From assembly GCA_020631485.1 (NCBI GenBank), contig JAHDHC010000005.1, positions 12,661 through 76,660 of the forward strand: a stretch of DNA of 64,000 bases, read 5' to 3'. The first letter of the stretch is position 1. Each line of letters opens with the position of its first letter. The stretch is from Candidatus Altimarinota bacterium. GTDB lineage: Bacteria > Patescibacteriota > Gracilibacteria > BD1-5 > UBA6164. The notes beneath the pieces were generated by a model. That model did no database searches. It was given only the letters and a program-made list of their open reading frames with translations, and was not told the DNA's origin. Position numbers and translations under genes: made by a program. Of the stretch, positions 18,289-59,607 are shown piece by piece.

Positions 18289-19770
18289 ATGAAAACACAA
18301 AAAACAAACCTTTCTAATCCATCCCCAGCCCTTAGCTTCAGAACTCACCCCCAACCCCTCTCTTGAAAAGAGAGGGGAGTAAGCGGGTTTACTCTTGTAG
18401 AGCTTATCGTGGTTGTTACTATTCTCGCAATACTCGCAACTATCTGATTTGTGAGTTATAGTAGTTATCTTATAGGAGTAAGAGATACCAATAGGATCGC
18501 CCAGATGACGAAGATATCAGATGCGCTGAATCTCTATTCTACGAGAAATGCACTTCCAATCCCAGAAGAAAATGTAGAGGTTCAGATAAATGGAAGTACC
18601 GTATGATACCAGTGATATGCTGGTAATAGTGTGCTTGAAAGCATAGAGTTTGAGAAGGGAGGAAAAGACCCAAAAGATAATAGTTATTTCAGTTATTATC
18701 TCACAAAAGATAGGAAGTATTTTCAGCTTCTGGGGTTTCTTGAGGAATGATCCGATCTTACGAGTTACACCCCTAGTTTATTTCTCACTCAGAAAAATAA
18801 TGATAGTTCCCCCTCAATGAGGGGGATGCCTGAAAGGCAGGGGGAGCTGAGTTTGGTAAATAGAGTATATGCTAATACTTACTTGGAAAGAATCCCAACA
18901 GTACTCGGGAAGAAGCTCTGAATCTTGACAGATACAGACAATACTCCGATTCAAGAGATCGGAGCAGTAGTGAGTGACGGATTTTTAGATCTCAGTGCAA
19001 CATCTACAGATTATATTTTACATGTTTCGAGTGATGAATCTATCATCGCAAGTGGTTCTGAGCTTGCAGCAAAATCTCAGTTACTTGTGAACTATGTTCC
19101 AAGATTTAGTCCAAAATCCATTCCATGACTATTTATGTGGTTTGATGCTGCTGATGTAACTTCTATACAGAAAAATAGTTCAAATATCATAAGTCAATGG
19201 GATGATAAATCAGGAAATAATAATCATTTTGATTCTATCGAAGGTGACCCTAGCTATGGAGATTATTCTATATCGGGACAAAAAACTGTTTATTTTGATG
19301 GGAATGACTCCATGAAAACTAGCACTACTTTTGATGCACCATTTACAATAATCTATGTATGAAAAATGGAATGATCACAAAATGGGAGAGCATTAACAGG
19401 TGATTATAATTCTATAATATGATTTTATGCAAATAATAAAAATGATTTATTCCTCAATGGAGCTTGGATTCAAAACTCTTCTGATCCATCTTGAACAAAT
19501 ACAGAAATGTTTTCAGTAACTCGTGATTCTGTAAGGGCAACTAATTTCTATAATAATTGAGAAAAACTATCTTTGTCTTCTGAAACAGCATGATGACTAA
19601 CTTTCGGTCATCTACGGATATGATGAGGATGACCAAATGGATGATGATTAGTAGCTCAACAAAAATCAAAAGTTGAATTGGCAGAAATACTTATCTTTGA
19701 TACGGTTATTTCAGATGATGAAAGGCAAAAAATTGAATCATATCTCAATGCCAAATGGTGACCATTTTAA
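18289..19770 (+). CDS. Type IV prepilin-like protein with LamG-like domain
   Basis: 493 residues. Cleavage after Gly33 precedes FTLVELIVVVTILAILATIG, the hallmark of type IV pilins with Glu5 present. The leader of 33 residues is far longer than the usual 6-15 and is mostly encoded by palindromic repeat sequence. A second repeat is translated near residue 175. The C-terminal half (MWFDAADVTSIQKNSSNIIS..., FDGNDSM, LAEILIFDTVISDDERQKIESYL) matches the concanavalin/LamG-like fold of secreted carbohydrate-binding proteins. So it is a pseudopilin carrying an adhesion domain. Terminators lie on both sides. The class is certain, the ligand unknown. Confidence 0.88.
18314..18380. repeat. Composite palindromic repeat in the prepilin leader
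   Basis: CTAATCCATCCCCAGCCCTT is the inverted tail of the unit at 630-667. It is followed by CTCACCCCCAACCCCTCTC-TTGAAAA-GAGAGGGGAG. The whole is translated as most of the leader peptide, with TGA as Gly26. Confidence 0.85.
18804..18850. repeat. Palindromic repeat inside the prepilin gene
   Basis: CCCCCTCAATGAGGGGG followed by GCCTGAAAGGC and GGGGGAGCTGA, read in frame as SSPSMRGMPERQGELS. Confidence 0.8.
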
Positions 19771-19902: not shown

Positions 19903-22900
19903 ATGAATACGTTTTTTAGGAAAACTACATTCCTAGTTATATGACTGATGTGTTTCAGTATTTTTAGTGTGAATACTGCTCATGCTGTGAGTGTAAATTC
20001 TGCAAATAGAACTCTTGAATATCTCGAGTTTAGAGATATTGATCGTGGGACATATAACGAATACAGATATAGGATCACAGAAAAGTACTTTGAGCTTCGT
20101 GATAGCTTTCAAGTAAATAGAAATATGGATACATCAATACTCCAAGACTTATCTACACTTGTTCAAAAGAGTTATGATTACCTTCCAGATAACCTTGAAA
20201 ACAAAAACCTCTACACACAACTGCAAACAGACATTCGTAATGCACTTCAGACTCCATGAAGTGATTCAACATACAACATCCTCATAGCTTCGATGCAAAA
20301 CTATGTAGAGGATGTCTCTATCCAAAGAATGAACGGAAGCATTGAGGTAAGCCCAAATGAAGGAAATGCTCCACTTAATGCTACTCTCAGAGCTAATATT
20401 GTAGATCCTACATGAGTAGATATTCCAAGCTATAACTATGTTTGGTGGAGTGATACTGGATCTGGAAGAAAAGTCCTATGAACCAAAAAATATCTCAACT
20501 ACACTTTCAATGAAGAAGGGAATTATTCGATTTTTCTGTGAGTTAAATCAAACCATAAAAATGTAAAAGGAAACTCAGATGTGCTCCCGTATTATGGAAA
20601 GGCAGAAATCAGAGTAAAAGAAAAAGTAGCATCTCTCATAATCAAGGTAAATTCACAAAGACTCAATAACGCAGATGAGTTAAAGTTTGACTCAGAAGTT
20701 GCAAAGTACTGATTGTTGTTTGATGCGACATCTTCAACTCCAAATTCGTGAATGAAGTTTACAGAAACAAACTGGGATTTTTGAAATGGTGTTGTAAGAA
20801 AAAATAGTTGATCCCCAAGAGTGGAGAAAGTCCCATATACCACAGATGGAGAATACAAAGTAAAACTTACACTCACGACAAACACCGGAAAAACAATAAC
20901 ACGAGATTTTAGTGTCCTTATCAATCATCCTGCTGCAAATATACAATCAAGTAGATCAGAATGATATATCGGAGACAAATTTACATTTTCATCAAAAAAC
21001 CGTAAGATCGATGAAGATGCGATAAACTACTCATGGGAAATTATAGATATCAATAATGATGAAGTAATTCATACAAAAAACTCAAATATTTTTAACTATA
21101 TATTTACAAAAAAATGACGTTATAATGTACAGCTCAGAATCACCCTTCCAAACGGTGATCAAGATACTGATACAAAGATTATCTACATAAATTCTCGTCC
21201 ACCACAGGCAAGTTTCATCACAAGGATACCATATCCAAATAGACCAAACTATGTCTTGCTCGATGGTTCAAGAAGTTTTGATCCTGATATCTCCGATGAA
21301 GGAAAGATGAGATACGAATGGACTATTGATGGAGAAAGAGTAGAGCTTATTGATGCAAATAGTAACGGAAGTGTTGGATATTATTATTTTGATTCTATAG
21401 GACAACATAGTATAGGACTAGAAGTTACAGACCCAGATGAAATGTGAGATGTCGAAAGTGGGACCATCGAGATCAAGTCTCTGCTTGATGTAGATTTTAG
21501 CTCGAACCCAACTGCAATTCAGAGAAATGGAACGATTCGTTTCCAAGCATCATCACAAAATGCAAGATTTTATGAGTGGGATTTCTGAGATGGGATAAAG
21601 GACTATGGAAGCAATAAAAGTATCTCACACACTTATGAAAAATCTGGTTCGTTTGTCGTAACACTCACAGTAACTGACGAAGCAAACAACAGAAACTCTG
21701 TAAAAAAGAATGTATTTGTATGAAAGAGTAACACGCCTTTGAGTGTCTTTAGTATGAAGAAAAATTCTGCGGAAAACCTCGAGTATGATCCTAGTGCCTG
21801 TGCAGGAAGATGAGCATTTATCGCAAATAAAATAGACAATATCAATTTTGATGGAAAAAAGTCTATAAATCTCGATGGCTCAAATCAGTGACTTACATAT
21901 TCTTGGAAAATATGACTCAATGATTATGAAACAAATGCAAATCCTAGCTATAAGTTTGACGAGCTTGGCTGTTTTCCAGTAAAACTTACGGTAGTGAGTG
22001 ATCAAAACAAATCAACGCACTCGACAGAGAAGCTCATAGAAGTGAGAAATATCCTCCCACAACTCTCAACACTTACGATCGATTCGTCAAATGATGAAAA
22101 TGATCCAATTATATTTAACATACGAGCGATAGGAGCTAAAGATCCTGATGGAGTTATACAGTCGTATTTGTGGTACTATTACACTGACTATGATACAGAA
22201 GCTCAGTGATTTAAAACTACGCCTGTACCAGAAACATCTTTTGTGCTTCCAAAAATCACAGGAACATACTTTTTTTGAGTGGTTCTCAAGGATAACAACG
22301 AGGAAACGTTTGGAAGTGAAGATATATGAAAATTCTTTAGAACTGTTTCAAGTGATCAGAGTGATACTCCTATAATAGAACTCAAGGTAAATGATAATTC
22401 ACTTTCGATAAACGAAGAAATCGTATTTACAGCGAAGGTAAAAAATATCATAGGAAAAGATCTATCAAACTCTGTTGAGTACTATTGGGATTTTGATGGA
22501 GATGGTTTCTTTGAGAAAAAATGAACCAGCCCTACTGTTACGTACAAATACAAAAAATCAGGGACATTTTACCCAAAACTCAAGGTCAAATACAGAGGAC
22601 TGAGTAACGTAAGAAATCTCACAGTTGATGTGAGCAATAAGCTCATGGCTGACTTTGACTATATTTCTGTAGGAAATAAGTTTGTATTTCTCGATACATC
22701 TCAGGGGAAGATCGACTCTGCGACTTGGGATTTTTGAGATGGAACAAAGTCTAATATAGCTTGAGATGTAGTACATAGCTATACCGGTGAAAAAAGGGTT
22801 CATACCGTAAAACTGACTATCCGTGAAGGGACAAAAACTGAAACAGTCGAAAAAGAAGTGGTTGCAAACATGAGAAATATTCTCAAAGCGAGAAAAACTG

Positions 22901-25560
22901 GGCTCAGTCTCTTTAGTTCTCCGATTATCGAGGATGACGTGATGAAGCTCACTGAAGAAGATGAGAAAATCACCCTCTATTTATGAGAAGCAAATGGGAG
23001 AGATCAAGGAGAAGTAGCCTACTATGTGGTTGACTACGATATAGAAACTGATAGTGATCTCAACTGAGGAAAAGACGATGATAGAGACAATATCAACACT
23101 TCAAGTTATAGAAACGGGACCCCGCTCAATATTCCAGTAAACGGAAACAAAAAACAAACAGTAAGAGTATTTACACTTGATGAAAATGAAGAGCTCATAA
23201 ACTCTTATGATTTTAGTATCGACAAAGCATATATAGTAGAAGAAACAATCAATCTCGATGATATAGTGTTTGAAGGAGTTTCTGAAAAAGAGAAAAAAAA
23301 GATCGAAGAGCTCAAAAGTCTTTTAACTGATCTCCCTGCTTGAACTCGTTTACAAGCTATGAAATATGTACAGAAACTTCAGGAGTGATGGTATGATTCT
23401 CGTTCAAAAACGGATACCATGGTAGAGATGCAGATGTTTTTGAGCCAGATACCAGAATATGATCCAACAGAGGTAAATGAACTTCTCGAATCTTTTCTCG
23501 TAGATGATTCTACTGACAGTTGAGAAAAAGAAGTACAGTTCAATGCCTTGAGTAATCTGATACCACAAAATATCAGTTGTGAAGATAAAGGTGAGTCAGA
23601 AAGTTGTTATGAAGCGCTTATTGTAAAACTTGAAAATATAAAAAACTCTACCAACCTCGAAGAAAATAAAAAACTCTGATCAGAAGTACTTGAGACAATT
23701 GGCCAACAGTCAAAAGATGTCATGAGTGCTGACTCTAAACTGAGATTTAAAGAAGTCTTAAAACCATTTGTCTATGGGGGAATCTCAAATGTACCAGAAG
23801 AAGAATTAGCTGAGATAGAAGAACCACAGGCTGACCCTACAAAGAAATGACTCTCTATTTTAAAATGGATTCTCTATATTACAGCATGAATTCTTGGGCT
23901 TATACTTCTCGGTTTGATACTGTTCTTTATATTTTACAAACTCAGAAATAAAGATGAAAATGTAGAGTTTCAGGATTTCATCATAGAAAAAACAAGTGGT
24001 TCATCGAAAAATACACAAGGAGAAGATGGAGTTATCACTGATCCACTCAACGAGAAAAACTCAGATGACGCACTCGCAAATATCAGTTTCTCTGAAACAA
24101 AAAATGAGAAACAACAAGAGGTTCAGGAAGCATGAGTAAAACAAAAAGATACAGCTATAGAAGATATTGATGATCCTCTCAATTGAGTAAATACTAACTC
24201 ATGAACGAAAAAAGAGTCAAAGATGATGCCTGATACTTCTTCTCAGAATCCAGAAGTAATCCCAAGCTGGCTTGGGACACCAAAAAAATCAACTGAAACA
24301 GCAGAGCAAAAATCTCCTACAGAGTCAGTCTGAACCTCTAAAACAAAGAGAGAAAAAACCGTAGAACTCAGAGGAAAAGATCAAGCTCCAAGTTCAGTAG
24401 GAGATACAAAGCCTCAAGCTGAAAATAAAGAATCTATTCCTGACTGGCTCAAATGAGCTGATCTCTCATCTCCAAAGCAAAAAGAAGAAATTGTAGCTCA
24501 AAAAACTCCTGAGAAGAAAGCAGAGACAACTTCTCAAACAGAAAAAAAACAAGAGGATAAAGGCACTAATACAGATTCTCAAACTTCTTCAAAATTGTCA
24601 GAAGAAGAAGCGAACATCCCTGACTGGCTCAAATGAGCTCAGTTTAAGAAAAATGATACTCCAAACAAGATCGCAGAAACACAAGAAAGAAAGATTGAAA
24701 AAAAGGATACAGATAGTCAAAAGAGTTCTAAAACTTCTAAAAAAGACAATGATCCTAAGTCAGAAAATCTTTCAGAAAATAATCTTGAAGGCGTAGAAAC
24801 GAAATCTGAAAATAAGAATTGAGTAAATTCTGAGAGCAAAGATCAAGATGTAAAATCTTGAGAAAACAAGAAAGATACTCTCAAGAAAAATCCTAAAAAA
24901 TCTGAGAGTTCAGATCAAAACCAAAAGGATAAAAAAGGAAATTGATCTCAGAAATTTGTAAAAGATGAAGAACTTGAAGATCTTACAAAACTTGATGATG
25001 GTATTCCTGACTGGCTCAAGTGAAGTCTTGATACGAAAAAAGATACAACAAAAGAGAAAATTGAGAAGAAAAAAGATTCAAAAGCCAAAAAACCAGAGCA
25101 AAAGCAACAAACACCACAAGATCAATGATGATCGAAATCTTTACAAGAAACACTTCTTGAGAATACTAAAGCTTCTCAAAAAGATAAAGGATCAGAATCT
25201 TCTAGATGAGAAAAAAAGAACTTTGAAAATACTACAAAAGATATTAAAGGTGCAGACAAGGACTCAAAATATGAAAGCCCTAAAAAACAAGAAACACCAG
25301 AGATATGAGAGATTTCAGTAAAAAAAGACTCAAAAACTCCTCAAAAATGACCAAGTAAAAAATCTAAAACCTCAGAAGAAAAGGGAGAAGAAGTACTTCC
25401 TGCTTCGAAAGATACCACAAAGAAAGCTCAAAGTTCTTCTAAACTCAAAGCTGATGCTGAAGCTTCTGAGAAAAAAGATGCACTATGAGAATGAGCTCTC
25501 TGGGAGGATGGTATGGAAATACCCGACTGGCTCAAATGATGAGATGATGATACAAAATAA
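19903..25560 (+). CDS. Giant PKD-repeat surface protein with cytoplasmic IPDWLKG motifs
   Basis: 1885 residues, one of the longest genes here, with dozens of TGA glycines. Signal peptide at 1-26. Then many Ig-like PKD domains of about 80 residues with the typical [YW]xWDFGDG pattern, for example YEWDFGDGIKDYGSN, YYWDFDGDGFFEKK and TWDFGDGTKSN. A helical region follows, then a transmembrane helix near 1317-1346. The last 540 residues are a Lys/Glu/Ser-rich disordered tail holding five IPDWLKG-like motifs at about 1453, 1512, 1572, 1701 and 1873, the last close to the C-terminus. The outer part probably acts in adhesion, the tail in binding an unknown cytoplasmic partner. Own promoter and terminator. 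Confidence 0.88.
24259..25539 (+). repeat. Five near-identical motif repeats in the tail of the PKD protein
   Basis: Motifs IPSWLG (24259), IPDWLKG (24436), IPDWLKG (24616), IPDWLKG (25003) and IPDWLKG (25519). The last four share the DNA pattern CCTGACTGGCTCAA or nearly so, each followed by TGA as glycine. Confidence 0.9.
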
Positions 25561-34836: not shown

Positions 34837-36624
34837 TTACTCCTCTTCGAGTTCAACTTTTATACTGAGTTCTGCAAGTTGCTCATCTTCAATCTCAGTT
34901 GGAGCATTCATCATAGCATCTTGTGCTTTTCATGATTTTGGAAATGCGTAGATTTCTCTGATATTTTCTTCATCCTTGAGGATCATCATAAATCTGTCCA
35001 TTCAGATGGCAAATCATCCATGCGGAGGAACTCCAAACTGAAATGCCTCATACATCGCTCAAAACTTGTCCTTTACTTCTTGCTCAGTTCTCCCAACTTT
35101 TTCAAAGGCAGCTACAAGTGCAGCAAGATCATGATTACGGATAGATCCTGAGAGTATCTCATATCCATTACAGGCAAGATCATATTGTACTGATTGTACT
35201 TTGAGAAGATCTTCTTCTTGAAAGGCTGCAATTCATCCTTTTGGCATTGAAAAAGGGTTGTGTCCGAAATCTACCTTTCCAGTGATCTCATTGATCTCAA
35301 ACATTGGGAAGTCAGTGATCCACGCAAATGAGAGAAGGCTTGTATCTTGAAGCCCAAGTTTTTCTGCGAGATATACTCTGAATTTCCCCATATAGTTACA
35401 CACGAGTTCTTTTTCTCCTGCTCAGAAAAATACTACATCTCAGATCTGAAGATGCGTTCTTTCTACGATTTCATTGAGATCTTCTTCACTAAAAAATTTA
35501 TTGAGTGGTCCTTTGAGTCCATCTTCTTTCATCTGAAAGTATCAGAGTCATTTTGCTCAGAATTTTCTCACATAGTCTTCAAATCATTTCATCTGCGTTT
35601 TAGAAAACTTTTCATCTCAGCCTACTACTTTTATTGCCTTGATCCTGTTTGTTTCAGGATCTGATGCGATACTTGCAAAAATCTCATTTGTTGATCTTGC
35701 GAATATATCGATCACATCTATAAGATGTAAATCATACCTTAGATCAGGTTTATCTGTCCCATATCTCTCCATAGACTCATTATAAGTGAGTTTTACAAAA
35801 TTTCGACTTTCTAGTATTTGCTTATCTGAAAGTTCTCATACAACATCGGTGAGATAGTTTTCAACGACTGCAAAAACGTCTTCTTGTTCTACAAAACTCA
35901 TCTCACAGTCTATTTGGTAAAATTCACATGAATGTCTATCTGCTCTCGGGTCTTCGTCACGAAAACAGGGAGCAATCTGAAAATATTTATCTATTCCTCA
36001 TACCATAAGGAGTTGTTTGTATTGCTGAGGTGCTTGAGGAAGTGCGTAAAATTTCCCAGGATTGAGTCTCGAGGGGATGACAAAATCACGAGCTCACTCT
36101 GGACTAGATGCTGTGAAAATAGGAGTTTGCACGTCAAGAAAGTCTCTATTTGCAAACCAGTCTCTTGTGTATTTAAGAAACTTTGATCTAAAAACAACAT
36201 TATCGAGAGCTGAAGGTCTTCTGAGATCTATATATCTGTGTTTGTAACGAATATCTTCACCAGCAAGTTCGCCATGATCATCGAGCTCAAAAGGAGGAGT
36301 CTTTGAACTACTGAGGAGTTCAACTGCGGAAGTGATGATCTCTATAGCTCCAGTTTTCATATTTGGGTTTGCTTGCCCTTCTGGTCTTGGGCGTACTTTT
36401 CCTGTGACTTTTATGACATATTCACTTCTAAAACTATCAGCCAGTTCCCATGAAGCTGTGTCATCTTCTGGATCAAAGACTACTTGTGAGAGTCCATAGC
36501 GATCTCTGAGGTCTATAAAAATAATTCATCCATGATCCCTTCTGTTTGATACCCATCAACATAGCGTTACTTCTTCTCCTATATTTTTATCAGTGAGTTC
36601 GTCACATGTATGAGTTCTGAGCAT
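34837..36624 (-). CDS. aspS: Aspartyl-tRNA synthetase
   Basis: Charges tRNA-Asp (or tRNA-Asp and tRNA-Asn in organisms lacking AsnRS). 595 residues, the bacterial type. The N-terminal OB-fold anticodon domain starts [20 protein letters not shown] and continues with [19 protein letters not shown]. Class II motif 2 follows [11 protein letters not shown], and motif 3 is [19 protein letters not shown] near the C-terminus. A GAD insertion is expected from length. TGA codons fall at conserved glycines. Divergent from the giant orphan gene. Identity certain. Confidence 0.97.
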
Positions 36625-36705
36625 TTTTTTTAATTCTTTAGATATAAAACATTGCACGATTATAGGAAAAACAAGCTATAAATCAAGGGAAAAATATTTT
36701 GCAAT

Positions 36706-36733
36706 TTGACAAAATATAAGTATAATATATAAA
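36706..36733 (+). promoter_or_regulatory. Promoter of the 1418-aa gene
   Basis: TTGACA, 16 bases, TATAAA, ending 21 bases before the ATG. Confidence 0.7.
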
Positions 36734-36754
36734 ATATTTTATCATACAATTACT

Positions 36755-39700
36755 ATGACAGGAAATAGTGAGAATAATGTCAATAATATACTGGAAGAAA
36801 ACACAAAGAAGATGACTCCAGCTCAAGCGAAAGCTCAACTCATACAAGAATACCTCAAAAAGAAACTCAAAACTCCAGAAAGTATCGCATTTCTAAATGA
36901 AATAGATGAATCAAGAGATATTCCTGAGAGTATGAAAAAAGACCTTTTATTTTATATAAAAACAGTATCAAAATATGGAGATGTCTTAACGGAGTCTGAT
37001 ATAGAAGGGCTCACGTATATGGATGTTATCCCAGAAGTTACAGGAGTCATCACCTCACTCAGGACAAAAAGAACGGCTTTGAAAAATATTTTTCTCAGGG
37101 AGTACAATATCAGTTCAAGTAAATACGACAAAGATCTCGAGCCGATTATTAAAAAACTTGATGAAAATGGCCTTGCTGAACTCTTAGATATGGGGGAAGA
37201 GGAGAGAAGGGATCTACTTGTGGAAGTCTATGGGAAAAAAATCCCAGAAAAAAAGAATCTTACAAGATTTATTAATGACTTCAATCTCAAATGAAGACTC
37301 AAGAAACTGAGTCCAGATGAGAGAGAGAGATTTGACTATACACTCTCTCTCATCTATCAAAAAAAAGGTCATCTCGATACAGGAGATCTCGAAGAACTGT
37401 TTGATCTATGAATATTTACAGAGTCTGAAAAAAAAGAACTTGTAAGTATATTTATCCCAACTATGAGTCTCGCAAACGCTAGACTTTTAGGTATTGTTTC
37501 AGAGACTGAGGAGACAAAAATTCGTAACAAGTATGTAGATGAGGGAATAGCTTACTATGAGCTTAAAAAATGACTTTCAGATAGTGAGCTGGAAGCTTTG
37601 CGTACAAAGATATTTGCAGACCTTGAGACAAAGGATCTCATGATCGAAATAGCAGGATTGAAAGACTTTGACAAAGTTTTATGAAAATTGATAGATGCCT
37701 GAGAACTCGAAAAAATAGTCGCATGATACAACAATGTTTTGTATAAAGCCGAAGAGCAGATCTGAGAAACAGAAAACTATGACCAGTTTGAAAAAAAACT
37801 CACGGAAAGTATATGAAAACTCCAAGCTCAAAAGTTTCAGCCATGATCTACTTTAGCACTCCGTGAACAAGATGCTCAGTGAGAAACACATACTTTTTTC
37901 TTTGAGATTCTCAATAATGGGGAAAATACCTGAAATATCGTCCTGAAGCCCAGAGGAAAAGACAGTTATGATCGCTATGATAGTGGGAAAATGTGAGCAA
38001 AGTCATTTGATGAAGTTCTTGGTATTGTCAACAATTCCTTTGAGTGAAAAACCGGAAAAAAAGTGTTATGATTTCAAGTGCTTGATGAGTTTGATCTAAA
38101 AAAACAAATCGAATCTTGAAACATAGAACTAGATCATGATTCTGTAAAATTTTTAGACGATGCAGCGCTTAAGCAAGAAAAAGAAAATGTCAAAGAAAGC
38201 CTAAATGAGAGAAAGAAAGAGTTGCGTGATGCATGAAAGAGAAACATCCAGATTGAAAATGATCCACAAGTACAAGACCTCAAAGAAAAACAAAAAGAAC
38301 TTTTTGATGATACAGAAAGTCTCGAGATCAAAAACCAGAGACTTCTCAATCAAGCGCTTGATAATCTTGATCCAGATTGAAAAAAATATGGTTTTCATGA
38401 AAATACGACTTTTAAGTCTCAGAAAGGATGAGTGTTTACCGTAAAACACATAAATCCTATTTCAAATACGATTGTAATCTTTTCCCCATCAGCTCCATGA
38501 GGAACGCAAGAAATGTCCTACACAGATTTTGTGACAGCTTTTAAATCAGAATCAGCAAAGAGGATTTCTTCTTCTAAAACTTTTGAACAACTTCTTGAGC
38601 AAGTATCTTCGGAAAATGATATCTCATCAGAATGGTCAAAGTTTCATATCGACAACGGTGAGATACGTCTCAAAGATGGAAAGAAAAAAATAGACTATGA
38701 TTTTCTGGTAGGTGAGGATAACGAACTTATAAAAATCGTTGATATCAATGATGGGACAGGAATAGCAACGATCAATTTCTGAACGGTAGAACAGAAAAAA
38801 GAACACAATACAGGGAAAAAGGGAGAAAAACTCGAGGATGATACCTATATGAAAGAAACTTTTCGAGTAGATCCGACAAAGCACCAAGTGACAATGGGAT
38901 GGCTTGAGGACTACATCAAGTCAAACAAACAAATCCCAAGAGGACTCGAAGAGTGAAAAGCTGAAGAGACCAATTTTAAAAATGATGACAGTGATAGAAG
39001 TGGAAGTTTCATGTCGAGACTTTTTAAAAATAATTTCTCTATATTTGAGATTGTTTCAGGTTCAAAGCTTATGCTTGAGAACCTTCAAGCATATCTCAAA
39101 GAATGAGCTGATGAGCACTCTGCACAGTTTGCCAAGTCGTTCTTTTGAAAATTTCTCCCTGATGAAGTAAAGGCTGATCTCTCATCGAGACTGGAATCTG
39201 CTCAGAAAAAGAGGTCAGATGAGTATATTGATAAGCTTAAATCAATCGATTCTGGACCAGCAACTGAGATGATCGGGAAGTGGCTCAAAAACAAGGATGT
39301 CCCTCAATACAAGCTCGAAGCTGGACTCCTCTTTATGATGGAAAAATATGGGACCCTTTATTGTAAGTGAATTTATGAGGATGATGGAAAGTATCTTTGG
39401 TACAGGGCTCTTTGAGGAAAAGTTTGAGATGAGCTTTTTATGAAGGAATACAGAGAAACGCAAGAAGCGGATCAACCATTTTCAGAGGAACAGCTAGTAT
39501 TCGCTTTGCTATGAAAACAAATTAAACCATGAGGGTATAATTGAATACAAAGAAGATCGAGAATACAAAAAGACTACAAAGCAGTCAGAATACAATGAAA
39601 AAAAGATGAGATCGAGAAGGGAAAAGATGATGCTTTGAGATTCAGACAAGTACAATGAAGAGTAGATGGAGGTATGTGAGAGTTATACTCCGGTAACTAT

Positions 39701-41011
39701 CCAAATGCAGTTGGATGGATAGAACAAATAGTAAATAAAGGGGGTACATATGCACAGATGAATAAGTTGCCTTTTGTTATGGCATTTTCATGAATCATGT
39801 TTGATTTTGATGATGCATATATACTTGATCAAATTAAGGCTTTCAGTACAAAGTCTCAAATCCTTCCAATAACAACTCTCATGTCAAAGAAATCAGATAT
39901 GAAACTTCTTGATAAAACTATCTATCAAGTTATTTCTAGACTAGAAGATAGTTGAAAATACCCAGGCATACAGGCAAAAGCTGACAAAATAATTGGAATG
40001 CGTGGAGATATAAAAAAAGCTAAAATTATCGAGGCGACAGATAATTTTTATAAAGAATATGGTGATGTACTTACAGATATATTGAGTCAAGCAAACTATG
40101 CACCTAAATCTCAAAATGAAACACAAGAGTTCAATAAAATGATTTTGCTAGAAAAAGACCCTGGTGTTTGAGTTGATTGAAAACATCAATGATGAAATAA
40201 TACATTTAAAGAATATTATAATCATATTAGAGGTTTTATGGATGGGGATTGACAATTTAAAGAAGAATGACTCATGGCAGATGGAATGGCATGAATTGGA
40301 GTGACATGATCTCATATGAGAAAAGTAGTAAAACAAAACCTTACATATAGGACAGCTTGATATCCAAATATGCCATGATCAATTAAACTCGTATGGAAAG
40401 AAATCTCAAACACTTTAAAGTCTATTGCAAAGACATCATATTATTGATTAAATCTTGAATCACGTGAAAATAAAGAGGTTCAAGAAAGACTCATGATTGA
40501 TGTGCTGAAAAATTTACTTTCTTGAATACTTGATGCTCATGGTGCTGATCCAAAGGTTCTACAATCATATGAAGGATGAATCTTTTCCAACCTGAGTAAT
40601 GATTGGAACATACAAATCTCAAAAGATCTTGTTGATCAACAAACAGGTAGAGCTTTTGATCCAGAAGCAATTATGAATGCCTCTGAAGATTCAAGTATTG
40701 GGAAAAAATTGCAGAAAATGGTTGATTGAATTATAAGATTTGAGCAGTGATGAGTATCACTCAATACACAATCTTCAGGACCAACTAAAAAGCAAGAAAA
40801 TTCTTTTGAACTTATTGAAAAGGGGACAAAGGACACCCTAAAAAAGATAGTAGATGAAGTTGATTATGACTTTTTGTGAAAAGAAGTGCCTGATGATATA
40901 CATGTAGATTTAGATAAGTTCAAAAAAGATGGAGCATATAACAGGTCACGAGAAAGTATGAGTGCAAATAATAGAGTTCAGGAAGAATATGACTTAGAGG
41001 AAGAAGCATAA
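36755..41011 (+). CDS. Giant cytoplasmic orphan protein (1418 aa)
   Basis: Reads from MTGNSENNVNNILEENTKKM to EEYDLEEEA with dozens of TGA glycines. No signal peptide and no clear transmembrane segment, so cytoplasmic. Very rich in Lys and Glu. The first 600 residues are helical with coiled-coil-like stretches (KQEKENVKESLNERKKELRD, DLKEKQKELFDDTESLEIKN). A beta-rich part near 530-740 includes GFHENTTFKSQKGGVFTVKH and FRVDPTKHQVTMGWLEDYIK. The last third is helical and Gly-containing. I recognise no domain. Near-consensus promoter and strong terminator suggest high expression as a single gene. Confidence 0.82.
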
Positions 41012-53343: not shown

Positions 53344-55191
53344 ATGAAAATTGATTTATATAGAAATACACATGTGATAAGTTATTTTTTTGTATTTTTG
53401 TTTTTTCTTTTTAATCCGTCATTCACATTAGCTAGCCTCAAAAATGTCTCTTTAGAGAAAGCGACCTATCAGTCTTCGTATTTTGACAACATAGATAGTT
53501 CTTGGGAGGCTGTGGATGGTGATAAAACATCAGGAGACAACCATAGTCATACAAATAAAGAGGCTTCACCATGGTGGGAGGTAGATCTATGATCTGTCCA
53601 GAAAATCTCAAAAATAAAGATCTACAATAGAAACTCAAAGCCACAAAGCTACGCTTCTGCACTTAAAGATTTTTATATTTTTGCCTCAAAAGAAAGGCTT
53701 GAATGAGACATAGCAAAAGATGGAAAAACACTGGTATTTCATCCAGGAACCCTATGAGATTCGAAAGAATTTTCAGTAGATACAGAAGCTCGCTATGTGA
53801 GAGTCCAGTTGAGTGGAGAAGGTTATTTACATATGTCAGAAGTCGAGATTTATACTGAGAATGATGAAAGTTACGCTATCACACTTGAGTGAGTAAGCCC
53901 TTCTGAAAACTCAGCAATTGTACAGTTTCGCACTCCTCAAAATACTCAAGCATACATCGAGTATGGTGAAACAGAAAGTTATGGATCAACCAATACAAAA
54001 GAAAATTCCTTTAGATTTTCATCACACTCACAAACCCTCTCAAATCTCGATTCTGGGAAGAAATATTTTTATAGAATCAACACAAAAGACATCGACGGAA
54101 ACGCAGCCATAAAAAAAGGGGATTTTACTACTCTCTGAATACAAGATGATCTTCAAATACTCTCTCATAGAGTCGAGTTTACCTGATCTAATCAAGCAAA
54201 TGTCGTGTTTAAAACAAATGAAAAAACTCAGGCATCGATCGCATATGGTCAAGATAAAAAATATGATTTTCATACCGTTTTAGAAGCATCGTTTAGGTTC
54301 GATGCACATAGTCAACCACTCAAGTGACTCGAAGCTTGAAAATCATATCAATATCTCATCATGGTCCAAAACCAAGATGGAAACAAAAAGTTTGCAAAAT
54401 GAACCTTTACAAGCCCTAAAACTTCCCCATGAGGAACAACGATAAAAAACACAGACTGGGATATTCGTCAGTCAAACAATGTGAAGTTTTGAAATCATTC
54501 TGGAGATACGAGCTTTCGTCCAAGTAAACCAGGTGATACTGACGCTATAAGGGTCACTGTTGAAAAGTGAGAACACTATGGTACTGGGACTGATTTTAAG
54601 TTTCCGAAATGAACTCAAGAAGCTTGGGTGAGTTACTGTATCCGTCCGTGATACAATTGGAAACCTATCTCCTGAGGAAAACTTCCATGATTTGCTGGAA
54701 ACAGCACTCCATCCAATGGATGACAGGGGTGAGCAAGCTCGACAGGGAACAATGCCTGGTCAGCAAGAGGCTTGTATGGAATCTACAATAGTTCAAAAAA
54801 ATGAGTTGCAGTAGGGAGCTATATATATCATACAAATCAAAAAGGAAAATATGGAGATGCTGACTGGTGGGGACCAGGCTCAAATACACTCTTCTCACAG
54901 GCAAATATGCTCGAACTGAACAAGTGGTATGCAGTCAAACAACATATCAAGATCAATTCTCTTTGAAAAAGAGATGGACTACTTGAAGCGTGGATAGATG
55001 GTGAAAAGGTGTATTCAAACTCAACACTGAACTTTACCAACAATAATAGTTTCAGAGAAATTTACAGATTTTGGCTCGACGTATATTTTTGATGAGGAAA
55101 AACTGCACTGAGTGATCATTATGTATATTTTGATCAAGTGAACTACTCACTTGGCCCAAATGACAAAACTTCAGTTGAGTGTATAAATTAG
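53344..55191 (+). CDS. Secreted discoidin-domain protein with lyase-like C-terminus
   Basis: 615 residues. Signal peptide (FFVFLFFLFNPSFTLA). F5/8 type C (discoidin) domain at about 30-165: NVSLEKATYQSSYFDNIDSS and PWWEVDLGSVQKISKIKIYN, a carbohydrate-binding fold. Two fibronectin-III or PAP-N-like Ig domains follow (about 175-365: LEGVSPSENSAIVQFRTP; HRVEFTGSNQANVVFKTN). The C-terminal 245 residues (WVSYCIRPGYNWKPISGGKLPGFAGN; YHTNQKGKYGDADWWG; NKWYAVKQHIKIN) resemble PL14-type polysaccharide lyases. It probably binds and may cleave an acidic polysaccharide. Catalysis is inferred. Confidence 0.83.
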
Positions 55192-55238
55192 CTCACCTCT
55201 TGTGATACAATCAAAAAATATTCTTAAAACATAGTATT

Positions 55239-55700
55239 ATGAAAATCGATCTAGAAAAAACATATCAAGTCACAGATCCTCAGTGAGGAGTCAGTCTCTG
55301 TAATTTAGAGTCACTATTTAGTTCCTTGGAAAAAGTACTTTTATATTTCTATCCAAAAGATGATACTCCTGGGTGTACTCTGGAAAACACTGATTTTTCA
55401 GACTTCAAAGAGGATTTTGAATCACTTTGAATACAACTTATATGAGTTTCAAAAGATCCTCTTGAGTCACATCAAGGCTTTATTGAAAAATACAATCTTA
55501 AAAATAGCCTTATCTCAGACCCTGATCTTGTATTGCATAAAGAACTCGGAGCATATGGAGAGAAGAACAATTATGGAAAAATAGTAACATGAGTTATCAG
55601 ATCAACTTTTATAATTAACAAAGATTGAGAAATTCTCAAACAATGGAAAAACGTAAAAGCCACTGGCCATGCTCAGAGAATTCTCAAAGAATTGATATAG
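55239..55700 (+). CDS. bcp: Thioredoxin-dependent peroxiredoxin (Bcp/PrxQ type)
   Basis: 153 residues. LYFYPKDDTPGCTLENTDFSDF holds the peroxidatic cysteine (PxxxTPGCT). The usual resolving cysteine five residues on is replaced (E-N-T), so the enzyme may be 1-Cys in type or use a Cys elsewhere. GVSKDPLESHQGFIEKYNL and LISDPDLVLHKELGAYGEK follow the family. It removes peroxides in the cytoplasm. It lies between two secreted lyase-like genes, near yaaA and dps. Family certain. Confidence 0.93.
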
Positions 55701-55791
55701 TCAAAATATAAGATTATTTTTAATAAATATTTCAAAAAAATCTAAAAATATGTTGTAATATATGTATAAAAAAAATATTTTATTTTTATAT

Positions 55792-57285
55792 ATGCATTCA
55801 CAGTTTCAGATTCATTTTAGCAGAAAAGAAATATTGATACTTATATTGAGTCTTGTGACTTCACTATTTTATTATAGTCAGACTCTTGCAGATACGAGTG
55901 ATTTTGTTGTACCAATAATAATTCTTCAATGAGAAGAAATAGTATATCTAGATGTATGAGAGGAATTTAAAGACCCTTGAGCTCTTGCTTATGATAATAG
56001 AGATGGTTTTATCAGTGAGCATGTTATCATCAAGGGATCGGTAGATACACGCAAAGTCTGAGAATATCTATTGATATATAATGTTCAAGACAGTTCTGGA
56101 AATATTTCTGAATCTATAATGAGGCGAATAATTGTGCGAGAAAAACTAGAAAAAAAGAAGCCTAGAATTCTTGACTATGAAGTGAAACAGCTATCAAACG
56201 AGGAACTAAAGATTTTATTTAGTGCTGATGATTATACTCAATCAGCTATTATTTATGGAAAGATCTGAGAAAAACTCAATACAGTGAATGGTGTTGAAAG
56301 AAGCTTTGATTACAAGAATCATGAGCAGACTATCACTTGACTCCAGTTGTGAGAAACATACAAATTTATAGCATATGTGAGAAATAGAGATAAGGAACAT
56401 GATTATGTAAAATGACAATTTACGATGCAAGTATATGAATGATTATCTGAAGATGAGGATAATAAGCCCGGAGACTCAGGAAGCTTTTATTTTACTACAC
56501 TTCCAGATTCTTACAAAGACTTAGAATCCAAGAATACACTCAATTCACTCTGGAAGGATGAGACTCTCTGAATCACACAGGACTTCGTAAAAGAAAATCA
56601 AAACTGGCTCAAACTCTGAATCCCATCACGTAAAAGACTCTCGATTTGAAAAAGTCCTGATGGAAAGACTTCGCTCGTACATACAGTGAAAAAACCACAA
56701 GAAATTCAACCTGTAGGGATAAATCTGAAATCAATTTTTAGACAGCCGTACTCAGATAAAGGGCATGTCGTAGAATTTGATTTTTATTCTACTGGCTATT
56801 CATGATACCCCGGAAAGGTCTTACAACTCGAGTGAGGTCGTGGTTGGCGTGGAAATGGGCATTTTCGTAGAGGGACAGAGCACGGGGAAGCGTGATGGTG
56901 AGTGAATCTGATGCGTCCGACTACTGGGAATAAGAATTATTTCCGTGCATTTGGAAGTCATCTTGATCATCCAACTGATTATGGAGAAGTATTTACAGGA
57001 GACCGTACTCCTTATGAAATCAATGCGTGGAATAAGATTGCACTCGGAGTCTATTATAAAAAAGGGAGTAAAACAGAGGGGAGATATTTCATATATATTA
57101 ATGGAAAAAAACACCTCGAAACAGATTTTCTCCATCTTCCGAGTGAAAAATGACAAACACTTGGAGATATCAAATCTATTCATGTATATCTGAGACTGAT
57201 GGATGGAGGTACACCAAGCAAAATGATAGAGTGAGCGAGCTATATAGAGTATTTTAGAAATATGGATTTCAAGAGTATCAATTAA
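55792..57285 (+). CDS. Secreted Ig-like protein with lyase-like C-terminus
   Basis: 497 residues. An N-terminal signal sequence (ILILILSLVTSLFYYSQTLA) leads a DUF5011-type Ig-like domain (VPIIILQGEEIVYLDVGEEF; GEYLLIYNVQDSSGNISE), then a second Ig-like region. The C-terminal half (VGINLKSIFRQPYSDKGHVVEF; GYSGYPGKVLQLEGGRGWRG; FRAFGSHLDHPTDYGE; NAWNKIALGVYYKKGS) resembles the PL14-like region of the previous secreted gene. An in-frame ATG at 55762 could add ten residues. Same likely role: acting on a polysaccharide outside the cell. Catalytic residues are not identified. Confidence 0.77.
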
Positions 57286-57391
57286 TATTCATAAAATACG
57301 TGTTGAACCTGTGAATCACTCATGCTCATTATAGTATTTGCGCTTAAAATTATTATATAATCAGCTTCTAGTATTATAAAATTTTAAATAA

Positions 57392-57420
57392 TTGACATAA
57401 TTTATATATATTTGTAAATA
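57392..57420 (+). promoter_or_regulatory. Possible promoter of the beta-helix gene
   Basis: TTGACA, 17 bases, TAAATA, 51 bases before the ATG. The -10 match is weak. Confidence 0.4.
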
Positions 57421-57471
57421 TAAAAAAAATATGAGATACTACTTACAATACATGTATATAAGTAGTTTTTT

Positions 57472-59607
57472 ATGAAAATTATTTCTCATTTTGACATCAA
57501 AGTATTGCTCTTGTTCTGATGTGTTATCCTCATAAGTCTTGCGAATATAATTTATACTTTTGCAAGTTTGTCAGCTGATGCTCGTCCAATTATTATCATG
57601 CAATGAGCACTCGAACAAAAGCTAAATGTTTGAGAGGCATATGTAGAACAATGAGCGCTCGTGTATGATGAAAATGATTGATTTCTAGATGGTCAACTTG
57701 AGATTACAGGAAAAGTGGACGTGGATACTCCATGAGAGTATGTTCTGAGCTACAAGGCTCGAAACTCTTTGTGAAATTATTCTATAAATCATTATAGAAA
57801 GATAGAGGTAGTAGGATCAAGAGTCATAGTTCCCAAAACAGATTTACAGATACTTTCTCATAGCGTTGAGTTTATTTCAGGAACTGATGTAAAACTTACA
57901 TTTGTCACAAACACAGAGACACAAGCAGTTGTGTGATATGGAAAATCAGGAAAATACGATACTTACACTCCAGTAGAAAAATCTTACAACTACGCAAAAC
58001 ATATTTTTTATCTGAGAGACATCAGCGCATACGCTTCCTATAACTACTTGATCATGGTAAGAGATGAAGCTGGAAATAAAAAGTTTGCTAAGTGATTTTT
58101 TGGGGAAGACGAAGAAAAAGATTATGAAGATGATGATAGCTCAGGATGATGATCATCGTCCTGAAGATGAGCCACTGGAAAAGTACTTGCAATACCTGGA
58201 GCTGTTTGATGAGGGAAAAATGCAAGATGAGGAAGATGAGGTAGAGTTCTTATCGTCAATACACTCAGTGATATCGTAAACCAAAATGATAATTATCTCT
58301 CACTCAGAGAAGCACTCACTGTAGAAAAGTGACCAAGAACCGTAGTGTTTGCTGTTGGCTGAGTCTTTGATCTCACGAAAAAACGGATAGAGCTCTCTTG
58401 AGCAAACTCTGGCTACCTCACTGTTGCCTGTCAAACAGCACCAAGTCCAGGAGTGATTATAAAAACTTGAAGATTTCATATGTCCAATATCTCAGACATT
58501 GTTATGACTCATTGTGTCCATAGAAACTCTGATACTGGAAATGGATCATGAGGGGCTACGGACAACGGAAGAGGGATCTGAATATGACAATGAGTCACTG
58601 ATGTACTTATAGATCATGCGAGTATTTCTTGGGCGACTGATGAAAATTTTCAAATTTATCAGTGAGATTATTCCCCAAAAAAATCTATAGAATGAATCAC
58701 TTTGAGTAATAGTATCGTATCAGAGGGAGATGCTGATAGTAGTCATCCACAGTCAAAATCTAAGCAAAATCTTGTGTATCACTCGATGTGACCAAGTTGT
58801 AACTCAAACAATGCCAGACTCCAGCAATACAATCCAAAAAAAATATCTATCACTTCAAACTACATCGCACACAACACTTCCAGAAATGGAGCTATTTATT
58901 CATGTGAAGCTGAAAATACAAATAATATTATTTATAACTGGGGAACAATCGGGACAGATCTCATATCTTGGTGATGATCATCAACGGTATTTATCAGAAA
59001 TAATCTTCTCAAAGCCTGAAACACCACTATGCAGTGATGAGCATGAAGATGTGGAGGGACAACTCACAGATGTGCCTATGCTATATGAGTTGGAGGAAAA
59101 TATCCGCTCAATATTGATATCAGAAGTAACTATTATATAGCAGAAGGGAAGAGTTTGGGATCAGCTCAGCTCATGACTGATCATCCAAATATCTTAAAGA
59201 TAAATAAAAATATATATTTTCCATGGGCAGCCCCAGAAAGGGAAAATATAAAGAAACTAGCAGAGAAAAATAGTAGGCATATGAGGTGTATATGAGCATC
59301 AAGACCCTCAAGGGACGTGATTGACGCTCGTGTTATTTCTGAGTTTTATAGTTCGACAGGACATGTATGAATATTTGAAAATAGGAGAGGAAGTTCACAT
59401 AACTCTGTTAAACAACGTGATTATTCTATGTATAAAAATACTCGTCACTCTTCAAGTTATGATACTGACAAAGACGGTATGAGTGATGATTGGGAAAGAG
59501 CAAATGGACTTGATCCAAACAATTCTCAGGATTATAAATGAGATCTTGATAAAGACTGATACACAAATATAGAAGAATTTCTTGCCGATATGGCCTATTG
59601 TGAATAG
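57472..59607 (+). CDS. Secreted right-handed beta-helix (pectate-lyase-like) protein
   Basis: 711 residues with about 50 TGA glycines, one of the most TGA-dependent genes here. Signal segment near 10-35 (LLLFGCVILISLANIIYTFA). An Ig-like DUF5011-type domain (RPIIIMQGALEQKLNVGEAY), then an FN3-like region, an acidic Gly/Ser linker, and a beta-helix: GRVLIVNTLSDIVNQNDNYL, LREALTVEKGPRTVVFAVGG, and VLIDHASISWATDENFQIYQ match pectate lyase superfamily proteins. A C-terminal calcium-binding TSP3-like motif is DTDKDGMSDDWERANGLDP. It fits an extracellular uronan lyase; the substrate is unproven. Confidence 0.85.

What the first reader, a model, noticed from the sequence alone, without database searches (positions are those of the whole stretch)
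24259..25539. Five IPDWLKG motifs in the cytoplasmic tail of a giant adhesin-like protein
The outer PKD domains, a single membrane helix, and a roughly 540-residue disordered tail with five spaced IPDWLKG motifs suggest multivalent docking to a cytoplasmic partner. The motif DNA is nearly identical among four copies, so it was duplicated and kept. I know of no such motif in named families.
Basis: partly seen in the sequence, partly recalled or inferred. Interest (0 to 1): 0.7.

Follow-up and report, generated by a model that had tools for sequence, protein, structure and literature searches.

The report
Repeated docking motif in surface-protein tail
A giant surface protein of Gracilibacteria carries, on its inner side, several copies of one seven-residue motif (IPDWLKG) that all 30 relatives' tails examined have kept, which marks it as an undescribed docking site for a protein inside the cell, possibly a cell-division protein.

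Summary
Read with TGA=Gly, window 19903-25560 encodes an 1885-residue PKD surface protein with one membrane helix and a 540-residue low-complexity cytoplasmic tail. The tail has four exact IPDWLKG copies plus one degenerate copy (IPSWLG), not five equal ones. Shuffling predicts 0.01 hits in the window; four are found. The gene is present in 58 of 60 relatives. All 30 orthologue tails examined carry 2-7 motif copies (133 strict copies against 0.02 in shuffles; 133 of 172 tail tryptophans), although the rest of the tail is barely conserved. The last copy usually sits at or near the C-terminus. Other families of the class end the tail of a PKD membrane protein with the same motif; one family (f13) has lost it. 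So the motif is old, selected and probably a docking peptide. No paper in the held library describes it. The partner is not identified. The best candidate is the divisome: the motif shares the skeleton [IV]-P-x-[F/W]-L-[K/R] with the FtsZ C-terminal peptide of the same organisms (VPAFLRK), which binds FtsA. FtsA is present and SepF absent. That last step is inference (about 30-35%).

The parts
19903..25560 (+). giant PKD surface protein gene, TGA=Gly (1885 aa)
   Evidence: translation, Pfam PKD, orthologues in 58 of 60 relatives
19903..19986 (+). N-terminal signal peptide, approximate
   Evidence: sequence MNTFFRKTTFLVIGLMCFSIFSVNTAHA
19987..23853 (+). extracellular PKD region plus a membrane-proximal helical part
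23854..23931 (+). single transmembrane helix, approximate residues 1318-1343, followed by KLRNK (inside)
   Evidence: sequence
23938..25557 (+). 540-residue cytoplasmic low-complexity tail
   Evidence: composition; low alignment conservation
23938..23997 (+). juxtamembrane segment NKDxNxxFQDFIIxKTS recurring among orthologues
24259..24276 (+). motif copy 1, degenerate (IPSWLG)
24436..24456 (+). motif copy 2, IPDWLKG
24616..24636 (+). motif copy 3, IPDWLKG
25003..25023 (+). motif copy 4, IPDWLKG(SL)
25501..25539 (+). C-terminal box WEDGMEIPDWLKG, motif copy 5, the most constant position among orthologues
18289..19770 (+). upstream type IV pilin-like (N_methyl) protein; similar genes also flank orthologues in L262 and L263

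Best explanation
The tail is a multivalent docking platform. Each [I/V]-P-D-W-L-K-G copy is a short linear motif that weakly binds a pocket on a cytoplasmic partner, and several copies (2-7) on one disordered tail give avidity or gather several partner molecules under the giant PKD surface protein. SHOWN: the motif is real, non-random, kept in all 30 orthologue tails examined, usually placed at or near the C-terminus, and found in several families of the class. INFERRED: that it is a binding peptide (about 85-90% likely). INFERRED AND UNTESTED: that the partner is the cell-division protein FtsA (about 30-35%). On that reading each copy imitates the FtsZ C-terminal peptide (own genome DLDVPAFLRKKK), with Ile/Val, Pro, aromatic, Leu and basic residue in the same register, so the surface protein is tethered to, or competes at, the FtsA-FtsZ ring.
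For: 30 tails hold 133 copies of [IVL]P[DSNE]WL against 0.02 in shuffled tails; 133 of 172 tail Trp sit in the motif; P 1.00, D .89, W .98, L .97, K .74, G .71. Motif pattern in 58 of 77 genomes of the order, reversed-pattern control 0. The last copy is 7-19 residues from the C-end in most family f1 tails and ends exactly as ..[LI]P[DES]WLK* in most family f3 tails. Other families of the class end a PKD membrane protein with the motif: L128 LPDWLKGEK*, L129 VPDWLKGA*, L131 VPDWLKGV*, L132 LPDWLK*, L136 IPDWLKK*, L137 IPDWLKN*, L269 IPDWLKG*. FtsZ C-termini of the order read mostly D[LYF]D[VI]P[AST]FLR[KN]. Against that profile the average motif window scores like the top 0.07% of 60,801 background 10-mers. 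[IVL]P.[FWY][LIM][KR] has no hit in the window's proteins other than the four motif copies (19,266 aa scanned). FtsA adjoins ftsZ in the own genome. In E. coli I374 and L378 of DIPAFLRK are critical for FtsA binding and the free peptide binds FtsA only at about 50 uM (PMC4117426), so several copies would make sense.
Against: No interaction was tested. The motif has conserved Asp and Trp where FtsZ has Ala/Ser/Thr and Phe, and a G-S-F/L continuation that FtsZ lacks. Many families with FtsZ and a V/I-type FtsZ tail lack the motif, so it is not coupled to FtsZ. In family f9 FtsZ ends in [DE]TPAF[LM]R, yet three genomes carry IPDWLKK at the C-terminus of a DHH phosphoesterase, which suggests a partner independent of the FtsZ tail. 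The loss of the motif together with the V/I to T change in f13 is suggestive but rests on one clade. The comparison with FtsZ was made after seeing the motif.
Confidence: 0.4

Rival explanations
1. The motif docks a dedicated, undescribed hub protein of Patescibacteria unrelated to division; several unrelated proteins (PKD tails, Ig-like membrane proteins, a DHH phosphoesterase) use the same peptide to reach it.
For: Motif on He_PIG-type membrane tails outside the class (L265 DEGDIPDWLKGDD, L266 DDEEIPDWLKSAD) and at the C-terminus of DHH proteins in f9. The Asp and the G-S-F continuation are motif-specific.
Against: Only two such cases outside the class among several hundred genomes, where the pattern as a whole is near its control rate. 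No candidate hub gene was seen next to the gene; neighbours are not conserved.
Confidence: 0.35
2. The motif docks the cytoplasmic side of a pilus or secretion machine (a VirB4/TraG-type ATPase or a PilM-like protein), coupling surface PKD proteins to it.
For: In other families of the class the neighbouring PKD giant starts with a type IV secretion pilin domain (PF18895). Pilin-like N_methyl genes flank the gene in the window, L262 and L263. A TraG/VirB4-type ATPase gene lies in the ftsA-ftsZ region of the own genome.
Against: No cytoplasmic machine gene is linked to the tail gene in any locus read. The pilin domain is on another protein and was not found on the protein of this order.
Confidence: 0.15
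3. The repeats are drifting low-complexity sequence or a recent DNA duplication without function.
For: The four copies are nearly identical in DNA over the motif; some relatives show fresh tandem copies (L038).
Against: The same residues are kept with different codons across genera while flanks diverge; 133 copies against 0.02 expected; C-terminal placement in several families.
Confidence: 0.02
4. The tail motif is a regulated degradation or trafficking signal instead of a scaffold.
For: The last copy sits at or near the extreme C-terminus, where such signals often lie.
Against: Internal copies are just as conserved and need no free C-terminus.
Confidence: 0.08

Closest known systems
FtsZ conserved C-terminal peptide (E. 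coli DYLDIPAFLRKQAD; own genome VEDDLDVPAFLRKKK)
   Same: [I/V]-P-x-aromatic-L-basic in the same register, acidic residues before it, at the end of a disordered linker, weak single-site affinity expected
   Different: Motif has Asp and Trp at the two middle positions, continues with G-S-F/L, is repeated 2-7 times and sits on a membrane protein, not on a tubulin homologue
PKD-domain surface proteins with a T4SS_pilin (PF18895) head in Peregrinibacteria-type genomes
   Same: Homologous PKD ectodomain; in several of these families the neighbouring PKD gene carries a membrane helix and a tail ending in the motif
   Different: In the window's order one protein carries ectodomain, membrane helix and an expanded tail; no pilin head was found by Pfam
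Giant membrane proteins of Vampirococcus lugosii (PMC8080830)
   Same: Very large CPR surface proteins, PKD domains among them, proposed to act in attachment
   Different: The passages read describe no cytoplasmic tail motif; the relation to this gene was not tested

Membership tests
FtsZ C-terminal peptide / FtsA-binding peptide | Ile/Val and Leu at the two binding-critical positions (I374, L378 of E. coli FtsZ) | tested here: met
   V/I 0.94, L 0.97 over 133 windows; critical residues from PMC4117426
FtsZ C-terminal peptide / FtsA-binding peptide | similarity to the organism's own FtsZ tail above background | tested here: met
   42 of 60,801 background 10-mers score as high as the mean motif window; post hoc
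FtsZ C-terminal peptide / FtsA-binding peptide | direct binding to FtsA | not testable with these tools
   no complex prediction or assay available; FtsA present in the own genome
FtsZ C-terminal peptide / FtsA-binding peptide | covariation of motif and FtsZ tail across families | tested here: inconclusive
   f13 and f9 have T-type FtsZ tails; f13 lost the motif, but many V/I families also lack it and f9 has IPDWLKK on a DHH protein
SepF-dependent anchoring | SepF present | tested here: not met
   PF04472 in 0 of 26 genomes of the class, positive in 7 control genomes
PKD-domain surface proteins | PKD domains above the Pfam cut-off | tested here: met
   PF18911 161 bits, cut-off 27
T4SS pilin-PKD proteins | PF18895 head domain | tested here: not met
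   absent from P0001 in Pfam; present in relatives of other families

The most novel reading that the evidence does not exclude
A giant surface protein of Gracilibacteria carries a string of FtsZ-tail mimics on its cytoplasmic side and so ties the outer surface, through FtsA, to the division ring; this would be a direct outside-to-divisome link of a kind I do not know to be described in bacteria.
Probability: 0.3. Interest if true: 0.8.

Novelty: new variant of a known kind. Interest (0 to 1): 0.62.

Why it matters
Conserved short linear motifs shared across a whole order are rarely described in bacteria, and almost nothing is known of how CPR bacteria connect their large surface proteins to the inside of the cell. 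The motif gives a ready bait: a synthetic peptide, or the tail itself, could identify the partner in one pull-down. If the partner is FtsA, it would couple the cell surface to division in these small, often host-attached cells.

Tried and rejected
SepF as partner: absent. Other proteins of the same genome bearing the motif: none by pattern in the own genome; of the other hits inspected in relatives of the order none lay in frame. Conserved gene neighbour as partner: neighbours differ between genera, apart from recurrent pilin-like genes, ssb, lepB and truB in some. Motif as a phylum-wide feature: outside the class only background-level hits, with two real exceptions. Chance or unselected duplication: excluded by the shuffles and conservation. 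Fold of the membrane-proximal ectodomain: modest model (pLDDT 69) and only generic Ig-like hits. Literature: no paper in the held library contains IPDWL, and none of those with PDWLK is relevant. First protein search with a short hand-written peptide found nothing.

Full report
What is there. The window uses the SR1/Gracilibacteria code (TGA=Gly): with table 11 there are 8 ORFs of 150 aa or more, with table 25 there are 80, and the gene at issue needs 50 TGA codons read as Gly. The gene 19903-25560 (+) encodes 1885 residues: signal peptide, a long ectodomain with PKD domains (PF18911 7e-48), a membrane helix near residues 1318-1343 followed by KLRNK, and a 540-residue tail rich in K, E, S and D. 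Motif copies start at 24259 (IPSWLG), 24436, 24616, 25003 and 25519 (IPDWLKG).

Is it more than chance. The DNA pattern for P[DE]WLK occurs four times in the window against 0.01 in shuffles, and the pattern for IP[DE]WLK occurs only in this gene in the 1.2 Mb genome. In 77 genomes of the order 58 have the latter pattern, with no hit of the reversed control. The protein has a single orthologue in nearly all relatives (58 of 60 have a match), 43-50% identical to the window's protein in the ectodomain among the sampled genera of the family.

Conservation. In an alignment of the orthologues the ectodomain is well conserved and the tail almost not (mean column identity in many tail blocks 0.07-0.34), with the motif-bearing blocks the better ones. 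Thirty tails hold 133 copies of [IVL]P[DSNE]WL, against 0.02 in shuffled tails, and 133 of their 172 tryptophans lie in a copy. With a slightly wider pattern every tail has 2-7 copies, most often 4 or 5. The consensus is [VI]-P-D-W-L-K-G-S-[FL]. The last copy is usually at or near the C-terminus: W-D-D-G-M-x-[IV]-P-D-W-L-K plus a few residues in the window's family, and exactly ..[DE][LI]PDWLK* in most of another family, f3. A few tails end otherwise (L005, L012). The DNA of the four copies in the window is alike only over the motif; the shared GAC codon (20% of Asp codons in this gene) suggests copying, but across genera the codons differ, so selection on the peptide maintains it.

Beyond the order. 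A profile of the ectodomain finds relatives in 198 of 288 genomes of the class. Twenty such loci were read. In several non-recoded families the PKD ectodomain is spread over two adjacent genes: a giant whose N-terminus is a type IV secretion pilin domain (PF18895), and a second PKD protein with membrane helix and a tail that ends in the motif (L128, L129, L131, L132; similar in L127 with IPEWLK; L130 has an internal copy and is cut by the contig end). L136 and L137 are single proteins ending in IPDWLKK and IPDWLKN. Other families (for instance L138, L143) have the PKD gene pair without the motif. Family f13, also TGA-recoded, has an orthologue with a membrane helix but a short tail without the motif. 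That f13 is Absconditabacteria (SR1) is my recollection of a genome size, not a test. Outside the class the motif pattern is at control level, with two real cases of an Ig-like membrane protein whose cytoplasmic tail contains IPDWLK (L265, L266).

What could bind it. The motif was found in no other protein of the genomes tested inside the order, and the gene's neighbours are not conserved, so the partner cannot be read from gene context. The closest known peptide is the FtsZ C-terminal peptide. In E. coli it is DYLDIPAFLRKQAD; [quoted passage not shown] FtsZ of the window's genome ends DLDVPAFLRKKK and other members of the order alike. Aligned on Pro, the motif keeps I/V, P, an aromatic, L and a basic residue. 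The average motif window scores against the order's FtsZ tails like the top 42 of 60,801 background 10-mers, and the wider class [IVL]P.[FWY][LIM][KR] has no other hit in the window's proteins. SepF is absent from 26 tested genomes of the class, FtsA is present next to ftsZ in the own genome with clear solved relatives. This makes FtsA the most economical candidate.

What speaks against FtsA. The motif's own Asp, Trp and G-S-F are not FtsZ-like. Across the families sampled, FtsZ tails are V/I-type except in f9 and f13, which have Thr. f13 lost the tail motif, which would fit a changed shared pocket, but many V/I families also lack the motif, and in f9 three genomes carry IPDWLKK at the end of a DHH phosphoesterase. 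The test is therefore inconclusive, and a hub other than FtsA is about as likely.

Verdict. The motif has no description that I could find. The partner is the open question, and it is directly testable.

Noticed in passing
L344 1283-2725, L346 1438-2871, L347 912-2417: A DHH-family phosphoesterase in family f9 genomes ends in ..IPDWLKKSFPKN or similar after a low-complexity linker: the same motif on a predicted soluble protein.
   Followed up: partly
L265 1-1650 and L266 1366-3018: Ig-like membrane proteins from other Patescibacteria families have a cytoplasmic tail with one IPDWLK copy about 50 residues from the C-end.
   Followed up: partly
L128, L129, L137, L138: Giant PKD proteins with a T4SS_pilin (PF18895) head domain followed by a second PKD gene: a recurring arrangement in non-recoded families of the class (the PF18895 match in L137 is below the Pfam cut-off).
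   Followed up: partly
L285, L298-L300, L302, L304, L305, L307: FtsZ C-terminal peptide has Thr in place of Ile/Val (DTPAFLR, ETPAF) in two families, f9 and f13.
   Followed up: partly
L095 6775-8628: A TraG/VirB4-type ATPase gene lies just upstream of ftsA and ftsZ in the window's own genome.
   Followed up: no
G119 contigs C5, C7, C35, C49: The 16-mer CTCCCGACTGGCTCAA occurs several times on different contigs of one f9 genome, not in frame in an ORF of 90 aa or more; perhaps a repeat element.
   Followed up: no
window 36593-41011: A 1472-residue protein without any Pfam match.
   Followed up: no
window 53344-59607: Run of extracellular proteins: a discoidin/polysaccharide-lyase-like protein and two Ig-like surface proteins.
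   Followed up: no
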